A stretch of 64,000 bases of DNA, from NCBI RefSeq assembly GCF_003846175.1, contig NZ_ML123046.1, positions 344,906 through 408,905 on the forward strand, given 5' to 3'. Within the stretch, counting starts at the first letter, position 1; each line of letters begins with the position of its first letter. The notes beneath the pieces were generated by a model. The model made no database searches and had not been told where the DNA came from. It saw nothing but the letters and a program-made list of their open reading frames with translations. This DNA comes from Streptomyces sp. ADI95-17. GTDB taxonomy: Bacteria; Actinomycetota; Actinomycetes; Streptomycetales; Streptomycetaceae. Positions 8,521 through 19,911 of the stretch are shown in pieces. The translations under genes and the position numbers were made by a program.

Positions 8521-11112
8521 TCAGCGCATCCGGCCCAGGGACTGCTTCAGCCGCCGCGCATCGCGCAGTCGCTGCTCGTACGTCGCCCCGACCACCAGCA
8601 ACAGCAGCCCGGCCACAGCGGGCGGCAGCCAGCGCGGCAGCGCGCCGACCACCTGGACCACGTACGGCGCCAGTTCGTGCACCGCGTCCAGGCCCAGCAC
8701 CGCGCCACCGACCAGCAGCAGCGCCTGGAGCCGCAGCCGGGCGCCCGCCAGGGTGATCACCAGGGCCGCCGCACCGAGCAGCAGCGGCCGCAGCCAGTGC
8801 GGATCGAGCCAGGCCGCGAAGAGGCTCGGCACCAGCGTCACCGTGAGACCCGCCCCGTACGCCGTCCACGACGACGCCTCCGGGTCGCGGCGCCGGCGCA
8901 GCACACCGACCACCAGGGCGGGCACCGTCACCGGCAGGGTGTACGCCTCCGGGTCCGACACCCCCGAGGCCGAGAGCCGCACCCAGGTCGCCAGGACGAA
9001 CAGGGCCACCGCCAGGTACCCGGCCACCGGCCGGCGCTCGGCCCGTACGGCCGTGCCCGCCGCGAGCACCCCGCTCAGCGCCAGCACCAGCGCCAGGAAC
9101 GGCCGGTCCGGCACCGCCATGACCACCGCCACCGCGGCCGCCATCGCCCCGGTCAGCTCGACCGGAAGAGCCGACGGGCGGTTCCGCAGCCGGGCCCCGA
9201 GCAGCACCGTCACCAGGGTGACGGCCAGCATCAGCGGCGCCGCCCGGTATCCGGCGAGCCCCAGCGACGCCCCGGCCGCACGGGCGAGCACCATCGCGCA
9301 CAGCACGGCCCCGCAGGCCGACACCGACTGTGCGATCCGCAGCGTCCCCGCCGCACGCGCCACTCGGGCCTGCGGCGATTCCCGCGTCGGCGTCGCGGTG
9401 TCGTCGAGCAGCACCGCGACCGCCCCGAACACCAGCAACAGCACCGCGAACACCGCGTACGTGGCGGCCTGAGCCGCGAGCGAGAGGAGCCCCGTGCTCA
9501 CCGCGCCGATCAGCCCGCACACCAGCGCGGCCGTCCCCGGCGCACCCGCCCCCCGGCGCAGGCCCCGCACCGCCACCGCGAACACCGCGGCGACCAGCAC
9601 CGACTGCGCCGCCACGGCCGTGGCGTACGACAGTCCCAGCACCGCGGGCAGCGTGACGAGCCCCGCCCAGCAGAGCACCGTCGCGACGGTCCCCGCCGCA
9701 CTCCGCCACGCCGGACCCGGCAGGACCACCGGACCGGCCGCCCCTGCCGGCCGGTCCCACGACCGGTGCGCCAGGCCGAGCAGACCGGCCACCACCAGCA
9801 GCACCAGCGGAGCCGCGGTCAGCTGGGACCACGCCGGACCCTCCGTGCCCAGGGCGGCCCGTACGCCACCGTCCGGCGCGCCGGACCACACGCGGGCCAG
9901 CTGCGACACCGTACCCATCAGCGACATCCCGACCGGCGGCGCCGAGGCCAGCACCGCGGCCGCGGTCACCGCCGACGAGGCCCACACCAGACCCTGCCCG
10001 ACCGGCCGGGGCAGCGGCGCCCGTACCGACGCCAACAGCACCGCACCGCACAGCAGATACACCGGCACCGACCAGTCCCACTCCATCCCGGCGCGCAGCA
10101 CACCGCCCACCGCGGCCACCCCGGCCAACCCGGCCAGCACACCGCCGGCCACCGCGAGGCCCCTGGGCGCACGCCACGCCCCGAACAGTGCGATCACCGC
10201 GCCCGCGAGCAGCAGTGCGGCCGGTGCCAGCGCGTCCGGCACCGCATCGGCGGACACCGACTGCGCCAGGGCCACCGCCAGTCCCAGCAGGCCCGTCGTC
10301 CAGCCGCCGACACAGGCCGTCACCCGGACCGCGAGGCCCGGCCCGCGCACCGCGATCGCGCAGTCCAGCGCCGCCGTCAGCAGCAGCGCCCAGCCGAACA
10401 CCGAGGCACCCGCACCCGCCGACCAGGCCCACAGCAGCAGCGGCAGCTGAGCGCTCACCACCGCCAGCGGCAGCGGCAGCCGCAGCCGGTCGAGCAACAG
10501 CCCGTACCCGGCCCACAGCACCGCCAGAACGGCCGAGGCGGCCGCGGCGAAACCGGGCCCGTCGGCGTCCGGCACCGCGACCCGGTGCAGCGCGTAGGCG
10601 TCGAGGATCATCAGCACGGAGGCCAGAGCGCCGAGCGACTCGGCCGTCGCGGACAGCCCGCGGCGCAGCAGCACGGCGGGGGCGGCGAGCGCCGCGAGTG
10701 TCACCACGGCGAGCACCGCCGAACGGCCGGCGATCCCCATGTGACCCCAGCTGACCAGGGTGAACGCGATCGCCGCGATCGTCAGCAGCAGACCGCCCAG
10801 GGTGAGCAGCACGTTCTGCGCGCTGCGCGGTCCGGCCTGCGCGGCAGGAGACCCGGGCACAGCCGCGAACGGGGCCGCGGGCCGAGCTGTCGAGGGCGGC
10901 CCGAACGGGGCGGCGAACTGCGGAGCCGGCGGTCCGGCGGGAGGCCCGGCGGGAGACGTCAGCACGCTCAGCAGCCAGGCACGGCGAACCAGCAACTGGG
11001 ACCGGCGGGCGTCCAGCCGGGCCAGTTCGCGATCGAGGAGCGCCAATTCCTCGGCGGGTGGCGGCACATGTTCCATGGACGCGAGTGTGGCGCGAGCCAC
11101 AGGTTCGGACAT
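8521..11112 (-). CDS. Large polytopic integral membrane protein, function unknown
   Basis: An 863-residue protein. The N-terminal 50 residues form a charged helical segment (ELALLDRELARLDARRSQLLVRRAWLL), followed by a Pro/Ala-rich linker (about 54-95). The remainder is an almost unbroken series of hydrophobic segments, on the order of twenty or more, rich in Ala, Val and Leu. Loop sequences contain no nucleotide-binding or transporter signature I can name. Such giant Ala/Leu-rich proteins are common in actinomycetes with no assigned role. The start at 11112 is uncertain; an in-frame ATG at 11076 (MEHVPPP) is equally possible. It is divergent from the SRPBCC gene with 47 nt between starts. Confidence 0.75.
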   Translation of the reverse strand: MSEPVARATLASMEHVPPPAEELALLDRELARLDARRSQLLVRRAWLLSVLTSPAGPPAGPPAPQFAAPFGPPSTARPAAPFAAVPGSPAAQAGPRSAQNVLLTLGGLLLTIAAIAFTLVSWGHMGIAGRSAVLAVVTLAALAAPAVLLRRGLSATAESLGALASVLMILDAYALHRVAVPDADGPGFAAAASAVLAVLWAGYGLLLDRLRLPLPLAVVSAQLPLLLWAWSAGAGASVFGWALLLTAALDCAIAVRGPGLAVRVTACVGGWTTGLLGLAVALAQSVSADAVPDALAPAALLLAGAVIALFGAWRAPRGLAVAGGVLAGLAGVAAVGGVLRAGMEWDWSVPVYLLCGAVLLASVRAPLPRPVGQGLVWASSAVTAAAVLASAPPVGMSLMGTVSQLARVWSGAPDGGVRAALGTEGPAWSQLTAAPLVLLVVAGLLGLAHRSWDRPAGAAGPVVLPGPAWRSAAGTVATVLCWAGLVTLPAVLGLSYATAVAAQSVLVAAVFAVAVRGLRRGAGAPGTAALVCGLIGAVSTGLLSLAAQAATYAVFAVLLLVFGAVAVLLDDTATPTRESPQARVARAAGTLRIAQSVSACGAVLCAMVLARAAGASLGLAGYRAAPLMLAVTLVTVLLGARLRNRPSALPVELTGAMAAAVAVVMAVPDRPFLALVLALSGVLAAGTAVRAERRPVAGYLAVALFVLATWVRLSASGVSDPEAYTLPVTVPALVVGVLRRRRDPEASSWTAYGAGLTVTLVPSLFAAWLDPHWLRPLLLGAAALVITLAGARLRLQALLLVGGAVLGLDAVHELAPYVVQVVGALPRWLPPAVAGLLLLVVGATYEQRLRDARRLKQSLGRMR

Positions 11113-11793: not shown

Positions 11794-12519
11794 TCACGCC
11801 GCGGCGGGCAGCTCCGGGCGCAGCGGCCAGGCCGGATCCACCGCCTCCGCCGTGCCGTTCTTCGCGAACCACGCCTGCAGCCCACGTGCCTGCGCCGCGT
11901 GCCACACGGCCTGCAGGGTGTGCAGCTCCGGCGGGGTCAGCCGGTCCAGCCGGGACGAGAACCGCCGCCCCACCGCCCGCACCAGCTCCAGCGAGGCCGC
12001 CGCGTCGGCCGCCGCGTCATGGGCGCCGTCGAGCACCACGCCGTACAGCTCGCAGAGATCGGTGAGGGTCCGCCGGCCCTTGCGGTAGCGGTCCAGATGT
12101 TTGTCGAGCACGCGCGGATCCAGCACGCACAGTGGGGAGTTCTGCAGATACGGCCCGAGCGACGAGGCGCGGTGACGCTTCAGCTCCCGGTCCAGCAGCG
12201 TCAGGTCGAACGGCGCGTTCATCACGACCAGCGGGCGCCCCGCCGCGCACTGCTCGGCCAGCGCACGGGCTATCTCCTCCACCACCGGCGCCGGCCAGCG
12301 GCCGTTGCGCTGAAGGTGATCGTCGGTCAGACCGTGGATCTCGGTGGCCCCCACGGGTACCGGTATCCCCGGATTCACCAGCCAGCGGGTGACGCGCATC
12401 CGCCCGCCCGCCGCGTCCTGGACGACCAGGGCGGCCGAGACGATCCGGTCCCCCTCGACGTCGACTCCTGTTGTCTCGGTGTCAAAAGCGGCCAGTGGCC
12501 CCTCGTACCAGTGAGTCAT
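11794..12519 (-). CDS. DnaQ-like 3'-5' exonuclease (DEDDh family)
   Basis: A 241-residue exonuclease domain protein. Exo I is FDTETTG with Asp13 and Glu15. Exo II lies in VVMNAPFDLTLLDREL, and the DEDDh signature is the HDAAADA segment (His and Asp). It resembles the epsilon subunit of DNA polymerase III but lacks an extra polymerase-binding region, so it is more likely a stand-alone proofreading or repair nuclease. The ATG at 12519 has a strong GGAG-type site upstream. It is divergent from the DUF4365 operon with 190 nt between starts. Confidence 0.85.
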   Translation of the reverse strand: MTHWYEGPLAAFDTETTGVDVEGDRIVSAALVVQDAAGGRMRVTRWLVNPGIPVPVGATEIHGLTDDHLQRNGRWPAPVVEEIARALAEQCAAGRPLVVMNAPFDLTLLDRELKRHRASSLGPYLQNSPLCVLDPRVLDKHLDRYRKGRRTLTDLCELYGVVLDGAHDAAADAAASLELVRAVGRRFSSRLDRLTPPELHTLQAVWHAAQARGLQAWFAKNGTAEAVDPAWPLRPELPAAA

Positions 12520-12709: not shown

Positions 12710-13276
12710 ATGGCGCTCGCGCAGCCCGAACCGAGCGGGCTGCTGTCACAGCGGATCGAACCGCTGCGCGGCACACTCGCAACCACCGCCTGCATGGAGA
12801 CGCTCCAGGTGGGCTATCTGCACGCCGTCGCGGCCGCGGCGGGGTGCTCCCTGTCGCAGCCCTTCCCCGACAACGGCATCGACTGGCATGTCAGCCACGG
12901 CGCCCCAGGCCATGCCGTGGACGACGAAGTGACCATAAAGGTGCAGCTCAAGTGCACGTACCAGATCCCGCCGAACCCGCCGGGACCGACATTCGCCTTC
13001 ACGCTCGACAACGCCCACCTCGTGAAACTGGCCCGGACGCCCGTGTCGGTGCACAAGATCCTCGTCGTGATGATCGTGCCGCGCAGCCAGGACGACTGGC
13101 TCCGCGCCGGACACGACCGGCTGGACCTGCGGCACTGCTGCTACTGGACCAACCTGGCCGGCCACGCGGTGACGGGCCGGCACCGGACGACCGTGCGGAT
13201 CCCGACCTCGCGCATCTTCGACGACCGGGCGCTCTGCGAGATCATGACCCGCGTAGGGGCGGGAGGGAGACCCTGA
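12710..13276 (+). CDS. DUF4365 protein with PD-(D/E)XK nuclease-like motif
   Basis: A 188-residue protein. Residues about 28-130 match the DUF4365 pattern: an N-terminal helix with Glu30, then GIDWHV (Asp58) and IKVQLKCTYQ (Gln79-x-Lys81). Asp58 with Q-x-K is the variant PD-(D/E)XK nuclease active site reported for this family, so nuclease activity is a family-based inference. The ATG at 12710 has GGAAGG upstream. Its stop overlaps the start of the next gene (TGATG), so the two are translationally coupled and probably function together. It is divergent from a DnaQ-like exonuclease. Confidence 0.75.
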   Translation: MALAQPEPSGLLSQRIEPLRGTLATTACMETLQVGYLHAVAAAAGCSLSQPFPDNGIDWHVSHGAPGHAVDDEVTIKVQLKCTYQIPPNPPGPTFAFTLDNAHLVKLARTPVSVHKILVVMIVPRSQDDWLRAGHDRLDLRHCCYWTNLAGHAVTGRHRTTVRIPTSRIFDDRALCEIMTRVGAGGRP

Positions 13277-14550
13277 TGCACCGGCCGATGGGCGAATACG
13301 ACGACTGCGCGGACGGAGCGGTCCCGCCGGCCACCCGCCCGCACCCCGCCGAGACCGCGGGACCGTGGCCCGACGCACCCGGACTCCCGGGGGGCGTCCC
13401 GGACCCCGCCAGGGTCGACCCCGCGGTGCTCGGCGCCCTGCTCGGCCGGCACGGCTGGCAGCGCCGGGGCGGGGCGGCCGGGCGCTACAGCCGCTGGACC
13501 CCTCCGGGCCCACCGGCCCCGCCCGGCGGCGGGACGAGCCTCCTGGTCCCCGACACCACCGCCTTCCCCGACAGCGAGGACCTCCTCGCCGAGGCACTGA
13601 CCGCGCTCGCCCGCAGCGCCGCACCCTCGGCCCGCGAGGTCCTGGTCTCCCTCGCCGTGCCCAGCGACGAGATCCGCTGGTGGCGCGAGGTCCCCGAAGC
13701 GGTCGCGGGCGCGGCCGGCTGGGCCGGGGCGGAGCGGCTGCACACCGCCGCCCGGCAGATACTGCTCGCCGGAGCCCTGGCCGTACGCGAGAACGCCGGC
13801 TACCACGGCGCACGCCACCGCCGCAGGGCCCGGGCCGCGCTCGAAGGCCTCCTCGTCGGGCCCGCTCCCGGCGGCCGCGAACTCGCCGCGTTCGTGCCGG
13901 TCGAACCGGGCCGCGCCGTCGCCGTACGCCTCTACCAGGCGCTGCAGGCCACTCGCGAGGCTGTGGACTACCAGCGGGCCACCGGCGGCTACGAAGCCTT
14001 CGACACCGCTGTCGGGGCGGGCGTCAGCCGGGAGCTGACCGAGGCCGTCATCGCACTCGTCCGGGGCTCGGAAGGGGCTGGGATAGCGCTGGAGTGGGCG
14101 CCCGCCGCCGGGACGCCCGAGGGCTGCCCGGCGCGGCCCGAGCCGGTGGAGTTCTCGCCGGGCGACCTGCCCGCCCTGCGCCGGGCCGGCGCCCGCTACC
14201 TCCACGACGAGCCCGCCCTGGCGGTACGGATCACCGGCGCCGTCGTCCGGATGCGCCGCTCGGCACCGCGCGGCGCCGGGATCGTGCGGCTGCGGGTGCT
14301 GGCCGGCGCCGAGGTGCCGCACGTGCGGCTGGAGCTGGACGAGGAGGCGTACCGGATCGCGGGCCACGCCCATCTCGTGGGGCTGCCGATCCGGGTGGAG
14401 GGCAGGCTGGAGAGCCGCGGCGGCTTCCGGCGGCTGACGAGGACCTCGCACGTCGTGCCCGTGCAGGTCGACGACGCGGAACGGGACCGGCTGATGAAGT
14501 CGCTCCAGGAGAACGTCGACCACTTCGAGGAGGCCTGCACCGGCGAATAG
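13276..14550 (+). CDS. Unknown partner protein of the DUF4365 gene
   Basis: A 424-residue protein I cannot assign to a named family. Residues 1-50 are Pro/Asp-rich. A first globular part (about 55-130) contains HGWQRRGG, SRWTPPG and SLLVPD. A helical middle (about 140-270) carries basic segments (GARHRRRARAALEGLL). A C-terminal beta-rich part (about 310-400) has the pattern ITGAVVRMR, VRLELDEEAYRIAGHAHL and IRVEGRLE, which resembles an OB-like fold of RNA/DNA-associated proteins; that is only an impression. It begins with an ATG inside the stop codon of the DUF4365 gene, so the two products are likely made in fixed ratio. No active-site motif is evident. Confidence 0.65.
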   Translation: MHRPMGEYDDCADGAVPPATRPHPAETAGPWPDAPGLPGGVPDPARVDPAVLGALLGRHGWQRRGGAAGRYSRWTPPGPPAPPGGGTSLLVPDTTAFPDSEDLLAEALTALARSAAPSAREVLVSLAVPSDEIRWWREVPEAVAGAAGWAGAERLHTAARQILLAGALAVRENAGYHGARHRRRARAALEGLLVGPAPGGRELAAFVPVEPGRAVAVRLYQALQATREAVDYQRATGGYEAFDTAVGAGVSRELTEAVIALVRGSEGAGIALEWAPAAGTPEGCPARPEPVEFSPGDLPALRRAGARYLHDEPALAVRITGAVVRMRRSAPRGAGIVRLRVLAGAEVPHVRLELDEEAYRIAGHAHLVGLPIRVEGRLESRGGFRRLTRTSHVVPVQVDDAERDRLMKSLQENVDHFEEACTGE

Positions 14551-14689: not shown

Positions 14690-16666
14690 GTGTCAGACGT
14701 CCGTGTGATCATCCAACGCGATTCCGAGCGGGAAGAGCGCGTGGTGACGACGGGCACTACGGCGGCCGAGCTCTTTCCCGGCGAGCGCACCGTTGTCGCC
14801 GCCCGGGTCGCCGGTGAGCTGAAGGACCTCGAATACGTCGTCGCCGACGGCGAGGTCGTCGAGCCCGTCGAGATCTCCTCCGAGGACGGCCTGAACATCC
14901 TGCGGCACTCCACCGCGCACGTGATGGCGCAGGCCGTGCAGCAGCTCTTCCCCGAGGCCAAGCTGGGCATCGGTCCGCCGGTCAAGGACGGCTTCTACTA
15001 CGACTTCGACGTCGAGAAGCCGTTCACGCCCGAGGACCTCAAGGCCATCGAGAAGAAGATGCAGGAGATCCAGAAGCGGGGCCAGAAGTTCTCCCGCCGG
15101 GTCGTGACGGACGAGGCGGCCCGCGAGGAGCTGGCCGACGAGCCGTACAAGCTGGAGCTCATCGGCATCAAGGGCTCCGCCTCCTCCGACGACGGCGCGG
15201 ACGTCGAGGTGGGCGGCGGCGAGCTGACCATCTACGACAACCTCGACCCGAAGACCGGCGACCTGTGCTGGAAGGACCTCTGCCGGGGTCCGCACCTGCC
15301 GACCACCCGGTTCATCCCGGCGTTCAAGCTGATGCGCAACGCCGCGGCGTACTGGCGCGGCAGCGAGAAGAACCCGATGCTCCAGCGCATCTACGGCACC
15401 GCGTGGCCCACTAAGGACGAGCTGAAGGCGCACCTGGAGTTCCTGGAGGAGGCCGCCAAGCGCGACCACCGCAAGCTCGGCAACGAGCTGGACCTCTTCT
15501 CCTTCCCGGACGAGATCGGTCCCGGTCTCGCGGTCTTCCACCCCAAGGGCGGCATCATCCGCCGCGCCATGGAGGACTACTCGCGCCGGCGCCACGAGGA
15601 GGAGGGCTACGAGTTCGTCTACTCCCCGCACGCCACCAAGGGCAAGCTCTTCGAGAAGTCCGGCCACCTGGACTGGTACGCCGACGGCATGTACCCGCCC
15701 ATGCAGCTCGACGACGGGGTGGACTACTACCTCAAGCCGATGAACTGCCCGATGCACAACCTGATCTTCGACGCGCGCGGACGTTCCTACCGTGAACTGC
15801 CGCTGCGCCTCTTCGAGTTCGGCACGGTGTACCGGTACGAGAAATCCGGCGTGGTGCACGGCCTGACCCGCTCGCGCGGCTTCACGCAGGACGACGCGCA
15901 CATCTACTGCACCAAGGAGCAGATGGCGGAGGAGCTCGACCGTACGCTCACCTTCGTCCTGAACCTGCTCCGCGACTACGGTCTGACCGACTTCTACCTG
16001 GAGCTCTCCACCAAGGACCCGGAGAAGTTCGTCGGCTCCGACGAGATCTGGGAGGAGGCCACCGAGACGCTGCGCCAGGTCGCCGAGAAGCAGGGCCTGC
16101 CGCTGGTCCCGGACCCGGGCGGCGCCGCGTTCTACGGCCCGAAGATCTCGGTGCAGTGCAAGGACGCCATCGGCCGTACCTGGCAGATGTCGACCGTGCA
16201 GCTCGACTTCAACCTGCCGGAGCGCTTCGACCTGGAGTACACCGGCCCGGACGGCACCAAGCAGCGCCCGGTCATGATCCACCGCGCCCTGTTCGGCTCC
16301 ATCGAGCGGTTCTTCGCGGTGCTGCTGGAGCACTACGCGGGTGCGTTCCCGGTGTGGCTGGCCCCGGTCCAGGCGGTGGGCATCCCGATCGGTGACGCGC
16401 ACATCCCCTACCTCCAGGAGTTCGCGGCGAAGGCCCGGAAGAAGGGGCTGCGGGTCGACGTGGACGCCTCCTCGGACCGGATGCAGAAGAAGATCCGCAA
16501 CCAGCAGAAGGCCAAGGTGCCCTTCATGATCATCGCGGGCGACGAGGACATGGCCAATGGCGCCGTCTCCTTCCGCTACCGCGACGGATCGCAGGAGAAC
16601 GGCATCCCGGTCGAGGACGCCATCGCCAAGATCCAGAAGGCCGTCGAGGACCGCGTCCAGGTCTGA
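14690..16666 (+). CDS. thrS: Threonyl-tRNA synthetase
   Basis: A 658-residue class II synthetase with the full bacterial architecture: N-terminal TGS domain (about 1-60), an editing (tRNA_SAD) domain starting at [11 protein letters not shown], the catalytic core, and a C-terminal anticodon-binding domain ending in VEDRVQV. The zinc site is formed by Cys in MNCPMHN, His in DDAHIYC and His in MIHRALFGS. Motif 2 is [15 protein letters not shown]. The GTG at 14690 is preceded by AGGAGAG. It stands immediately upstream of the Ap4A phosphorylase-like HIT gene region, as in mycobacteria. Confidence 0.97.
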
Positions 16667-18093: not shown

Positions 18094-19764
18094 CTACGCG
18101 TCGTACAGGTCGGCCTTGCGCGGGGTCGGGTCCTGCACCGCGCCGCTCAGTATCATCGAGCGGTTGTCGAAGCGCTCGGTATCGACGCCGTTCTCCTTGA
18201 GGACGCGCAGGGCGGCGCTGTGGACGGCGCGCAGGACCGGCGTCGCGGCACGCATCGCGTCGTCCGCCATGAAGCGGTGGCGCCACGGCTTCTCGGCCCA
18301 GGCGTGCCGCAGGCCGAACGGTTCGGGCAGGGCGATCTTGCCGCCCAGGTAGTCCAGCAGCGGCGGGTACCAGGTGAACGGGGCGCGCAGGGCGAGCCGG
18401 ACGACCTCGCCGGGCTCGACCAGGGGGAGGGTTATGTCGCGGGTCTCCCAGAACCGGACGGTCTTGTTGACCGTCTTGGTCTTGGCCGCGGGCTTGCTGG
18501 TGAAGAGCGAGTGGACCGGCCCGAGCGCGTGTCCGGTGACCTCGATGCGCAGCGTCTCGTGGAGCACCGTGACCGTGATCATCATCGTGATGATCAACTG
18601 GCCTTCCCAGAGGGTGAACTGGACGCCCAGATAGTGCCGGTCGCCGCTGCCGAACTGCTGGTGGTTGCAGATCCGCTGTATCTCGTGCGGCTTGACCTGG
18701 AAGGTGGCGACGTCCTCGCCGTCGGGGCGGGAGACCGAGCCGGCGTTCTCCCCGACGGGGGACACGATCCAGTGGGTGACCGACGGGGTGGGGAACCCCC
18801 CGGTGTTCAGCGGGCCGCGCTCCAGCACCTTGAGCTGGTCGTGGATGGCCCGGATCAGGTCCCAGCTGCGGAACTGGTGGAACTCCTTGCCGGGGTCCTT
18901 GGAGACGAGCTCCTCGGCGAGCTGCCAGCTGCCCCAGCGGGTGCCCATGCCGAGGATGCCCTTGGGGCCCGCGTAGAAGACCGAGTTGGACTGCTGCTCG
19001 GCGGTGAGCTTCTCCAGGCCCTGGCGGAGCGCCTCGCGGGAGGTCTCGTTGGGGTTCTTCGGCACTGCCTCGGGGATCTTGGCGATGACGCCGCCGCCGG
19101 AGAGCAGCCCCTCCCAACGGGCGCGCATGTCCTTGGCGGAGGACTCGGCGATCCGCTTGGCGATGAACCAGCCGATGACGGGGGCGATGATCATCGCCCG
19201 GACGTAGAGCGCCAGGAATCCGTTGAGCGGCAGGCCGACCAGGAAGACCAGCGCCACGATGCCGATGATCGGCAGCAGCGCGCTGCCCAGGGCGGAGAGG
19301 GCCTTGTCCTTGGTGCCGCCGAGGTAGTCGCGCAGGCGGAAGGCGAGGACCCACAGGATCATGCCGGGCAGGAAGACGAAGCCGAACAGCGCGGTGACGG
19401 CGGTGAGTTTGGTGTCGCGGCTCTTGCGGAGGCGGCTCGCGGACAGACAGTGCTCGACGACCGTCTGCGGGTCGGTCCCGAAGGACTGGATGAGGGCGCC
19501 GCGGGCGCCGCCCAGCATGCGTTCCTGGACGGCGCGGGAGAACGCCTCGCCGAGATTGGGCTTGAAATAGTCGGACTTGAAGAGCTTGGAACGGCCCACC
19601 TTGACTTCGGACTTGTGCCATTCACTGTTGGCTTCAAGGATTTTCTCCACCGGGCTGTCGCGGTACGCGGCGGAGGCGAGGGCGTTCGTCGCCACCGCCT
19701 GTCCGCCCGAACCCTGGAGCGGGATCTGCGCTCCGGGAGAGAAATCGAATCCGTCGCTGGCCAC
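18094..19764 (-). CDS. Conserved membrane-associated protein of unknown function
   Basis: A 556-residue protein with two or three hydrophobic segments in the first half (about 120-145 and 160-205) and large soluble parts on both sides. The soluble parts are rich in Trp, Arg and charged residues and show no motif I can name; the C-terminal portion includes a beta-rich stretch near residues 360-410. The GTG at 19764 is chosen because a GGGGG site precedes it and because the in-frame extension (to 19905) looks non-coding. It is a single gene between the HIT gene (convergent) and EF-G2 (same strand, upstream). Confidence 0.65.
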   Translation of the reverse strand: MASDGFDFSPGAQIPLQGSGGQAVATNALASAAYRDSPVEKILEANSEWHKSEVKVGRSKLFKSDYFKPNLGEAFSRAVQERMLGGARGALIQSFGTDPQTVVEHCLSASRLRKSRDTKLTAVTALFGFVFLPGMILWVLAFRLRDYLGGTKDKALSALGSALLPIIGIVALVFLVGLPLNGFLALYVRAMIIAPVIGWFIAKRIAESSAKDMRARWEGLLSGGGVIAKIPEAVPKNPNETSREALRQGLEKLTAEQQSNSVFYAGPKGILGMGTRWGSWQLAEELVSKDPGKEFHQFRSWDLIRAIHDQLKVLERGPLNTGGFPTPSVTHWIVSPVGENAGSVSRPDGEDVATFQVKPHEIQRICNHQQFGSGDRHYLGVQFTLWEGQLIITMMITVTVLHETLRIEVTGHALGPVHSLFTSKPAAKTKTVNKTVRFWETRDITLPLVEPGEVVRLALRAPFTWYPPLLDYLGGKIALPEPFGLRHAWAEKPWRHRFMADDAMRAATPVLRAVHSAALRVLKENGVDTERFDNRSMILSGAVQDPTPRKADLYDA

Positions 19765-19911
19765 TGTCGCCCCCACTCGCCGCCGAGGAACTGCTCCTGC
19801 GGCTGTTTCCCAACTGCCGTGCCCGGCACACCTTCTGAGCTGGGACCAAAGCGTATCGTCCGGATCGCCGCGCCGCCCGCCCCTGTGGACAAAGACGGGC
19901 GGCATGGCCGG

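What the first reader, a model, noticed from the sequence alone, without database searches (positions are those of the whole stretch)
12710..14550. Coupled two-gene unit: DUF4365 PD-(D/E)XK-like protein plus an unassigned partner, divergent from a DnaQ-like exonuclease
The first protein keeps Asp58 and Q79-x-K81 of the DUF4365 nuclease-like site. The 424-residue partner has no recognisable family but has a beta-rich, possibly OB-like C-terminus. TGATG overlap implies fixed stoichiometry. A nuclease-type protein with a dedicated unknown partner resembles a defence or nucleic-acid-quality module, although this setting is otherwise housekeeping. This is the best candidate here for an undescribed system.
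Basis: partly seen in the sequence, partly recalled or inferred. Interest (0 to 1): 0.6.

Follow-up and report, generated by a model that had tools for sequence, protein, structure and literature searches.

The report
Nuclease and partner defence gene pair
Two joined genes, a DNA-cutting-type protein and a partner with a nucleic-acid-binding fold, sit at a fixed chromosomal place in most Streptomyces while distant copies ride on phages, plasmids and defence islands; they are a catalogued but untested anti-phage candidate whose partner can outlive the nuclease.

Summary
Gene A (12710-13276, 188 aa) is DUF4365 with D58, Q79 and K81; gene B (13276-14550, 424 aa) overlaps it by TGATG and ends in an OB fold. 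The pair is already catalogued: PADLOC-DB models PDC-M02A and PDC-M02B match at 5.3e-93 and 1e-176, though no held paper names PDC-M02. A's predicted fold is closest to the DUF4365 nuclease domain of SPARDA (Z 13.7); there is no Argonaute. Distant pairs lie on a Leptospira phage, mycobacterial prophages, plasmids of several phyla, integrative elements and inside DISARM loci, which supports defence. The window copy differs: a vertically inherited dnaQ/thrS-linked locus of Streptomycetaceae, not in a defence island. In 101 genomes no A match lacks a B match (0 of 83), but B occurs without A (6 of 89, two at contig ends); yet B's frame is interrupted beside an open A in at least two genomes, which weakens the case that B must restrain A. 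Nuclease loss with an open, constrained B recurs. Most likely: a DREN-type nuclease coupled by B to foreign nucleic acid. Mechanism is inferred; no activity was tested.

The parts
12710..13276 (+). Gene A: 188-aa standalone DUF4365 (PD-(D/E)XK-like) nuclease-type protein, PDC-M02A
   Evidence: model pLDDT 81, pTM 0.75; best fold matches SPARDA nuclease domain
12881..12883 (+). Asp58 codon, putative metal-binding residue
   Evidence: D in 42 of 42 diverse A rows (some rows near-identical, two poor rows left out) and 57 of 57 core loci (one genome is in twice)
12944..12952 (+). Gln79-Leu80-Lys81 codons, QxK motif; by motif, not by structural alignment, it corresponds to Q62/K64 of SPARDA TmuRE (passages of PMC10810196)
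   Evidence: Q 41 of 42, K 42 of 42; Q 56 of 57, K 56 of 57 (exception L148)
13276..14550 (+). Gene B: 424-aa partner, PDC-M02B
   Evidence: model pLDDT 81.3, pTM 0.59
13408..13659 (+). B N-terminal domain (about residues 45-128), kept in short B proteins together with A; proposed A-coupling part (inference)
13660..14208 (+). B middle alpha/beta part (about residues 129-311), absent from short B proteins of cyanobacterial plasmids; its fold was not tested on its own
14209..14475 (+). B C-terminal OB fold (about residues 312-400), nucleic-acid-binding type
13274..13278 (+). TGATG stop/start overlap of A and B
11797..12519 (-). Divergent DnaQ-like (RNase_T) exonuclease, conserved neighbour, usually stays when A-B is lost
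14690..16666 (+). thrS (threonyl-tRNA synthetase), conserved downstream neighbour

Best explanation
A-B is a two-component anti-mobile-element module of the PDC-M02 type. Shown by sequence and model: A is a standalone DREN/DUF4365 nuclease-type domain with an intact active-site pattern; B has an N-terminal domain, an alpha/beta middle and a C-terminal OB fold; the two genes are overlapping or abutting partners in several phyla. Inferred: A and B form a complex through B's N-terminal domain, and B's OB/middle part binds an unusual or foreign nucleic acid and directs or switches A. By analogy with SPARDA, where the DREN domain alone showed no detectable activity and works after tetramerisation (passages of PMC12205087), sensing would bring several A subunits together so that they cut DNA and stop the invader or the cell. 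Whether B also restrains A is less sure. In Streptomycetaceae one copy has become a fixed, vertically inherited chromosomal locus between dnaQ and thrS. There the nuclease is repeatedly lost while B stays open and constrained, so B may also have a nuclease-independent effect.
For: PDC-M02A/B matches. SPARDA nuclease as top fold, Z 13.7, 139 residues, rmsd 3.4. OB fold. Full-length fold match of B to a 381-aa protein of Leptospira phage LE1, Q6NE06, E 5.9e-16; independently, A matches LE1 (E 0.02) and the gene after it encodes a 381-aa PDC-M02B, with a type IIG restriction-modification gene before A. Pairs on Mycobacterium prophages and on plasmids of Actinomycetota, Bacillota, Pseudomonadota and Cyanobacteriota. 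In L034 and L036 the pair lies beside a DrmD-type gene of DISARM (the same protein also matches a DrmA model), with a gene matching Orf5/HEC-06/mREase_IV models on the other side, and DrmMI after DrmD in L036; in L086 beside type I restriction and specificity genes. Among 129 neighbours of 23 distant copies: FtsK 5, phage integrase 5, GntR 8, UTRA 7. A match without B match 0 of 83, B without A 6 of 89, in the same 101 genomes. Short B keeps N-domain plus OB in 6 of 7 cases, N-domain alone in the seventh. G897 has an open A and a B cut down to about residues 42-174.
Against: No activity, complex or phage phenotype was tested. The window copy is not in a defence island: of 54 window proteins scanned, 36 PADLOC models matched at E up to 1e-10 (25 listed), and the listed ones are PDC-M02 except a DEDDh model and PDC-S48. 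The locus is vertically inherited and near-universal in the genus, unusual for a defence system. Against restraint by B: in G070 and G100 (both among the 83) and in G849 and G1055, A is open while B's match changes frame, though sequencing errors are possible (G1055's dnaQ is also interrupted; in G944, G977 and G1088 thrS, dnaQ or A is interrupted too). The N-domain/A link is not strict: G002 and G047/G911/G836 keep B's N-domain though A is gone or lacks its core. The B model has pTM 0.59, so domain arrangement is uncertain.
Confidence: 0.5

Rival explanations
1. Housekeeping or repair pair: A is a junction- or flap-type nuclease and B an SSB/RecG-like OB loader working with the neighbouring DnaQ exonuclease in DNA repair.
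For: Conserved dnaQ-A-B-thrS order in 30 of 30 Streptomyces loci (best-scoring ones); A, B and thrS together in 14 of 14 loci picked from strong matches in other genera of the family, with dnaQ in 13; Holliday-resolvase and RecG/PriB/SSB fold matches; low dN/dS of A, 0.157.
Against: The pair is dispensable: in 9 of the 101 genomes B and A are gone though thrS is there, and dnaQ usually stays. Distant pairs opened here lie on phages, plasmids, integrative elements and in DISARM.
Confidence: 0.22
2. Toxin-antitoxin-like addiction pair: A is a toxic nuclease, B its neutraliser; defence is incidental.
For: No A match without a B match (0 of 83) while B without A occurs (6 of 89); overlapping genes; presence on plasmids.
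Against: Open A beside a frame-broken or shortened B in G070, G100, G849, G1055 and G897. B is a large protein with a nucleic-acid-binding-type fold. Both genes are lost several times in Streptomyces.
Confidence: 0.12
3. Degenerating relic: an old defence module captured once in the family ancestor and now decaying, without a present function in this organism.
For: Losses, remnants (L125, L129), internal deletions, frame-broken B and an active-site-dead A (L148) in the family; 9 changes between intact and lost A on a thrS tree of 77 loci.
Against: In this window both genes are intact with a full active site; dN/dS of A is 0.157 and of B 0.276 over 30 genomes; 83 of 101 genomes keep an A match, at least one of them (G047) only a fragment.
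Confidence: 0.13

Closest known systems
PDC-M02 (PADLOC-DB 2.0.0 phage defence candidate, genes PDC-M02A and PDC-M02B)
   Same: Both proteins match at 5.3e-93 and 1e-176; adjacent genes.
   Different: Only a catalogue entry; no held paper names it. This copy is a chromosomal dnaQ/thrS-linked locus rather than island or element cargo.
SPARDA (short Argonaute with DUF4365/DREN-APAZ nuclease)
   Same: Nuclease fold and QxK motif.
   Different: No Argonaute and no fused APAZ; A is standalone and the partner is an OB-fold protein.
Archaeal Holliday-junction resolvases (Hjc) and other PD-(D/E)XK nucleases
   Same: Core fold, Z about 9 to 11.5.
   Different: No Hjc family match by sequence; operon with B.
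DISARM
   Same: Distant A-B pairs sit next to DISARM genes in L034 and L036.
   Different: No DISARM model among the 25 listed PADLOC rows of the window.

Membership tests
PDC-M02 candidate system | PDC-M02A and PDC-M02B protein models | tested here: met
   E 5.3e-93 and 1e-176
PDC-M02 candidate system | A and B adjacent | tested here: met
   TGATG overlap; 30 of 30 Streptomyces loci read
PDC-M02 candidate system | anti-phage activity | not testable with these tools
   needs phage assays
DUF4365 (PF14280) | score above the curated cut-off | tested here: met
   72.2 against 24.3 bits
PD-(D/E)XK nuclease | core fold with Asp and (D/E/Q)xK residues | tested here: met
   fold; residues
PD-(D/E)XK nuclease | metal-dependent cleavage | not testable with these tools
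   -
SPARDA | short Argonaute partner in the operon | tested here: not met
   B has no PIWI/Argonaute match at E up to 10; the flanking genes are dnaQ and thrS
SPARDA | nuclease fused to APAZ | tested here: not met
   A is 188 aa and the nuclease-domain match spans residues 21-186
Hjc Holliday-junction resolvase | Hjc family sequence match | tested here: not met
   only DUF4365 found for A at E up to 10
DISARM | DrmA/DrmB plus methyltransferase at the locus | tested here: inconclusive
   none among the 25 PADLOC rows shown of 36 for 54 window proteins
toxin-antitoxin | toxicity of A relieved by B | not testable with these tools
   only occurrence was tested: 0 of 83 A matches without a B match, but frame-broken B beside open A in some

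The most novel reading that the evidence does not exclude
PDC-M02 is a guide-free counterpart of SPARDA: the same collateral nuclease is controlled not by an Argonaute but by an OB-fold sensor with an effector-coupling N-domain. One lineage, the Streptomycetaceae, has taken it up as a near-universal chromosomal gene pair, in which the sensor has more than once outlived its nuclease and taken on a role of its own.
Probability: 0.28. Interest if true: 0.75.

Novelty: new member of a known kind. Interest (0 to 1): 0.5.

Why it matters
An uncharacterised nuclease module that most Streptomyces carry at one fixed place, with relatives on phages and plasmids of several phyla, could be a hidden barrier to phages and foreign DNA in an industrially important genus. 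Nature supplies the test set: full pairs, short B proteins, B without A, A beside a shortened B, and an active-site-dead A. These make the division of labour between nuclease and partner directly testable, and the SPARDA likeness suggests what to look for.

Tried and rejected
SPARDA membership rejected (no Argonaute, no APAZ). Hjc membership rejected by sequence. Internal duplication of the two halves of B: hhalign gave a probability under 1%, so not claimed. HEAT repeat (E 0.068) and RNA 3'-cyclase (E 0.0093, far below its cut-off) hits of B and gp41-tail matches of the B profile taken as chance. A strict rule 'B without A always lacks its N-domain' looked perfect at first (4 of 4) but was broken by G002 and G047/G911/G836. 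B in phage records by sequence: none; in IMG/VR with two queries: none. A profile search with alignment A1 in 396 phylum genomes found 9 genomes, all of this genus; its first look scored only 4 candidates a genome, so it is not read as absence. The VIA-align listing covers only B's OB part, so the folds of the N-terminal and middle parts are untested rather than new. Literature: 'PDC-M02' 0 papers; recalled S. coelicolor locus tags SCO1532-1534, a guess of mine, 0 papers. Two Streptomyces phage papers used PADLOC; their main texts hold no 'PDC', but their supplementary tables could not be read and may list it. Papers: passages only of PMC10810196, PMC12205087, PMC12988326, PMC11811056, PMC9252829, PMC8565338, PMC10117723 and PMC11536984; all other papers seen only as search listings.

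Full report
What is there. Gene A spans 12710-13276 (188 aa) and gene B 13276-14550 (424 aa), sharing one base in TGATG. A is DUF4365 (PF14280, E 6e-20); B has no accepted Pfam or NCBIfam family. Against PADLOC-DB, A matches PDC-M02A (5.3e-93, over residues 1-188, which also supports the chosen start) and B matches PDC-M02B (1e-176). So the pair is a catalogued phage-defence candidate. PDC candidates are described as unpublished, found by 'guilt-by-embedding' and mostly unvalidated (passages of PMC12988326 and PMC11811056); no held paper contains 'PDC-M02'.

Structure. A was modelled with 17 sequences (pLDDT 81, pTM 0.75). Foldseek's first 14 PDB hits are SPARDA complexes, best E 2.5e-6, and the second look gives Z 13.7 over 139 residues, rmsd 3.4, to residues 3-150 of a XauSPARDA chain; Holliday-junction resolvases follow at Z of about 9-11.5. 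The QxK of A corresponds to the Q62/K64 site of TmuRE (passages of PMC10810196); I matched them by motif, not by a structural alignment. B was modelled with 16 sequences (pLDDT 81.3, pTM 0.59). Its C-terminal part (312-405) is an OB fold with SSB, PriB, RPA and RecG matches at Z of about 8-9; the best row, Z 9.9, is SilF, and such Z values are modest. Foldseek alone gives no PDB hit with E under 0.001 for B. The only full-length match found is Q6NE06 of Leptospira phage LE1, E 5.9e-16, TM 0.52/0.57.

The pair across life. A was found in LE1 independently by sequence, weakly (E 0.02). There the next gene encodes a 381-aa protein that matches PDC-M02B at 9.9e-65, A itself matches PDC-M02A at 7.6e-51, and the gene before A is a type IIG restriction-modification enzyme. 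That this gene product is Q6NE06 itself I infer from phage, length and family. Further pairs lie on two Mycobacterium prophage records of equal length (one opened) and on plasmids. Of 27 plasmid records with an A match I opened 16, and all 16 have B or a short B next to A; one of these A genes is broken (L165). One search took 56 loci (mostly distant copies, with two Streptomyces core-locus remnants, L057 and L064): 55 have a B match and 51 of these have A directly upstream. Five loci are repeats that I recognised by equal contig lengths (L086 and L158 of L056; L159 of L075; L161 of L084; L162 of L090), leaving 46 of 50. Active-site conservation over 42 A rows, some near-identical, with two decayed or truncated rows (L064, L037) left out: D58 42, K81 42, Q79 41, D54 41.

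Contexts of distant copies. Among 129 neighbours of 23 distant copies, Pfam gives FtsK 5, phage integrase 5, GntR 8, UTRA 7, GmrSD_N 3, which fits actinomycete integrative elements (label recalled). In L034 and L036 the order is a gene matching Orf5/HEC-06/mREase_IV models, A, B, DrmD, with DrmMI next in L036; in L086 type I restriction and specificity genes are next. There was no matched control set for these counts beyond the window itself.

The window's copy is different. It is part of a conserved dnaQ-A-B-thrS block: 30 of 30 Streptomyces loci read, the best-scoring of 89 genomes, and 14 of 14 loci that I picked from strong matches in other genera of the family have A, B and thrS together, with dnaQ found in 13. 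The family-wide profile matched 128 of 200 genomes and 13 of 17 genera; this count includes distant copies. Median pairwise dN/dS over 30 genomes: A 0.157, B 0.276, dnaQ 0.175, thrS 0.191; synonymous sites are partly saturated. Outside the PDC-M02 models the window shows only a DEDDh model and PDC-S48 among the 25 PADLOC rows listed of 36, so it does not look like a defence island.

Losses. In one sample of 101 congeneric genomes B was matched in 89 (one, G044, only as a distant copy) and A in 83 (G047 only a fragment, G060 and G079 in two pieces). No A-positive genome lacks a B match (0 of 83). B without A: 6 of 89 (G002, G073, G087, G088, and G032 and G046 where the match ends at a contig edge). 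In three of the 12 B-less genomes the place could not be read (G001 and G078 lack thrS; G050 is at a contig end), so nine are true absences. In nine A-B-less loci, two of them from outside this sample (L124, L129), dnaQ and thrS lie 218-968 bases apart, two of the nine with remnants (L125 a B fragment, L129 fragments of both); in L126 and L128 dnaQ was not found. A 392-genome sample gave 343 with a match to B's residues 128-424. From it and the family sample I picked 24 genomes by hand, 20 with weak or odd matches and 4 low-identity ones meant as intact comparisons (two of which, G002 and G047, proved to lack an intact A), and checked A and B; this is not a random sample. It showed more B proteins that begin at about residue 113-120 with no local A (G867, G1016, G779), and three genomes (G047, G911, G836) in which A keeps about its first 60-70 residues and lacks the QxK core while B is full length. 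G002 has a full-length B and no A between dnaQ and B. On a single-gene thrS tree of 77 loci, A intact/lost changes at least 9 times by parsimony, and B without A sits in at least three separate places. Those B genes have no stop within the matched stretch; pN/pS is 0.52 (15 pairs, N-truncated B) and 0.41 (3 pairs, A-deleted clade), against 0.32 in intact Streptomyces and 0.64 in intact other genera, so constraint seems to persist, somewhat relaxed compared with the genus. One of 57 core A genes (L148) is open but has lost Q79, K81 and D54.

Results against restraint by B. The same 24 genomes, with G070 and G100 of the first sample, also hold the reverse case. In G070, G100, G849 and G1055 A is open while the match to B changes frame; in G897 A is open and B stops matching after about residue 174, with thrS close behind. 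In G1055 dnaQ, and in G944, G977 and G1088 A, dnaQ or thrS, are interrupted as well, so assembly errors may explain some of these. B in G868, G1054, G833 and G923 ends at contig edges. So A is not strictly dependent on an intact B, and restraint by B is only one possibility.

Natural dissection of B. Short partners of A on cyanobacterial plasmids (175-180 aa) keep the N-terminal domain (model positions about 4-84) and the OB fold (about 288-366) and lack the middle; this holds for 6 of 7 short partners, and the seventh, from Azospirillum, keeps only the N-terminal domain. Every B next to A (51 of 51) has the N-terminal domain, and G897 keeps it with A while losing the rest. B proteins without A often lack it: L057, L062, L063, L065 and L039, L041, L186, L187, L192. 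Exceptions that keep it without an intact A are G002, G047, G911 and G836. I therefore propose, with moderate confidence, that the N-terminal domain couples B to A. It is inference, not a shown contact.

Mechanism. Best reading: B holds A through its N-terminal domain, its OB/middle part binds a nucleic-acid signal of invasion, and clustering or release of A gives cleavage, as DREN tetramers do in SPARDA (passages of PMC12205087). Housekeeping repair remains the main rival because of the fixed locus, the dnaQ neighbour and the resolvase-like fold; dispensability and the mobile relatives speak against it. Whether the core copy still acts in defence, or B has gained its own role, is open.

Verdict. 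A real, conserved, two-gene nuclease module; catalogued but uncharacterised; a new member of a known kind with an unusual, vertically inherited lineage and a useful natural series of broken and shortened forms.

Noticed in passing
   Followed up: partly
   Followed up: partly
   Followed up: no
L140, L163, L164, L165, L171, L172 (Nostoc and Tolypothrix plasmids): Short 175-180 aa B partners made of the N-terminal domain and the OB fold only; L140 and L165 lie near a DNA/RNA non-specific endonuclease with an inhibitor-family gene.
   Followed up: partly
L062, L063, L065 (genus g64): B-like proteins without the N-terminal domain and without A nearby, at a chromosomal place whose neighbours are shared by the three genomes.
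   Followed up: partly
L090, 10391-11293: A second DUF4365-like gene (300 aa) directly downstream of an A-B pair.
   Followed up: no
L138, 1472-4255 (Leptospira phage LE1): A type IIG restriction-modification gene immediately before the A-B pair on a temperate phage.
   Followed up: partly
window, one unidentified gene of the 54 scanned: One window protein matches the PADLOC candidate PDC-S48 at 1.9e-25; which gene was not resolved.
   Followed up: no
window 8524-11112 and 18097-19905: Large proteins of 863 and 603 aa without a Pfam match at E up to 1e-5.
   Followed up: no
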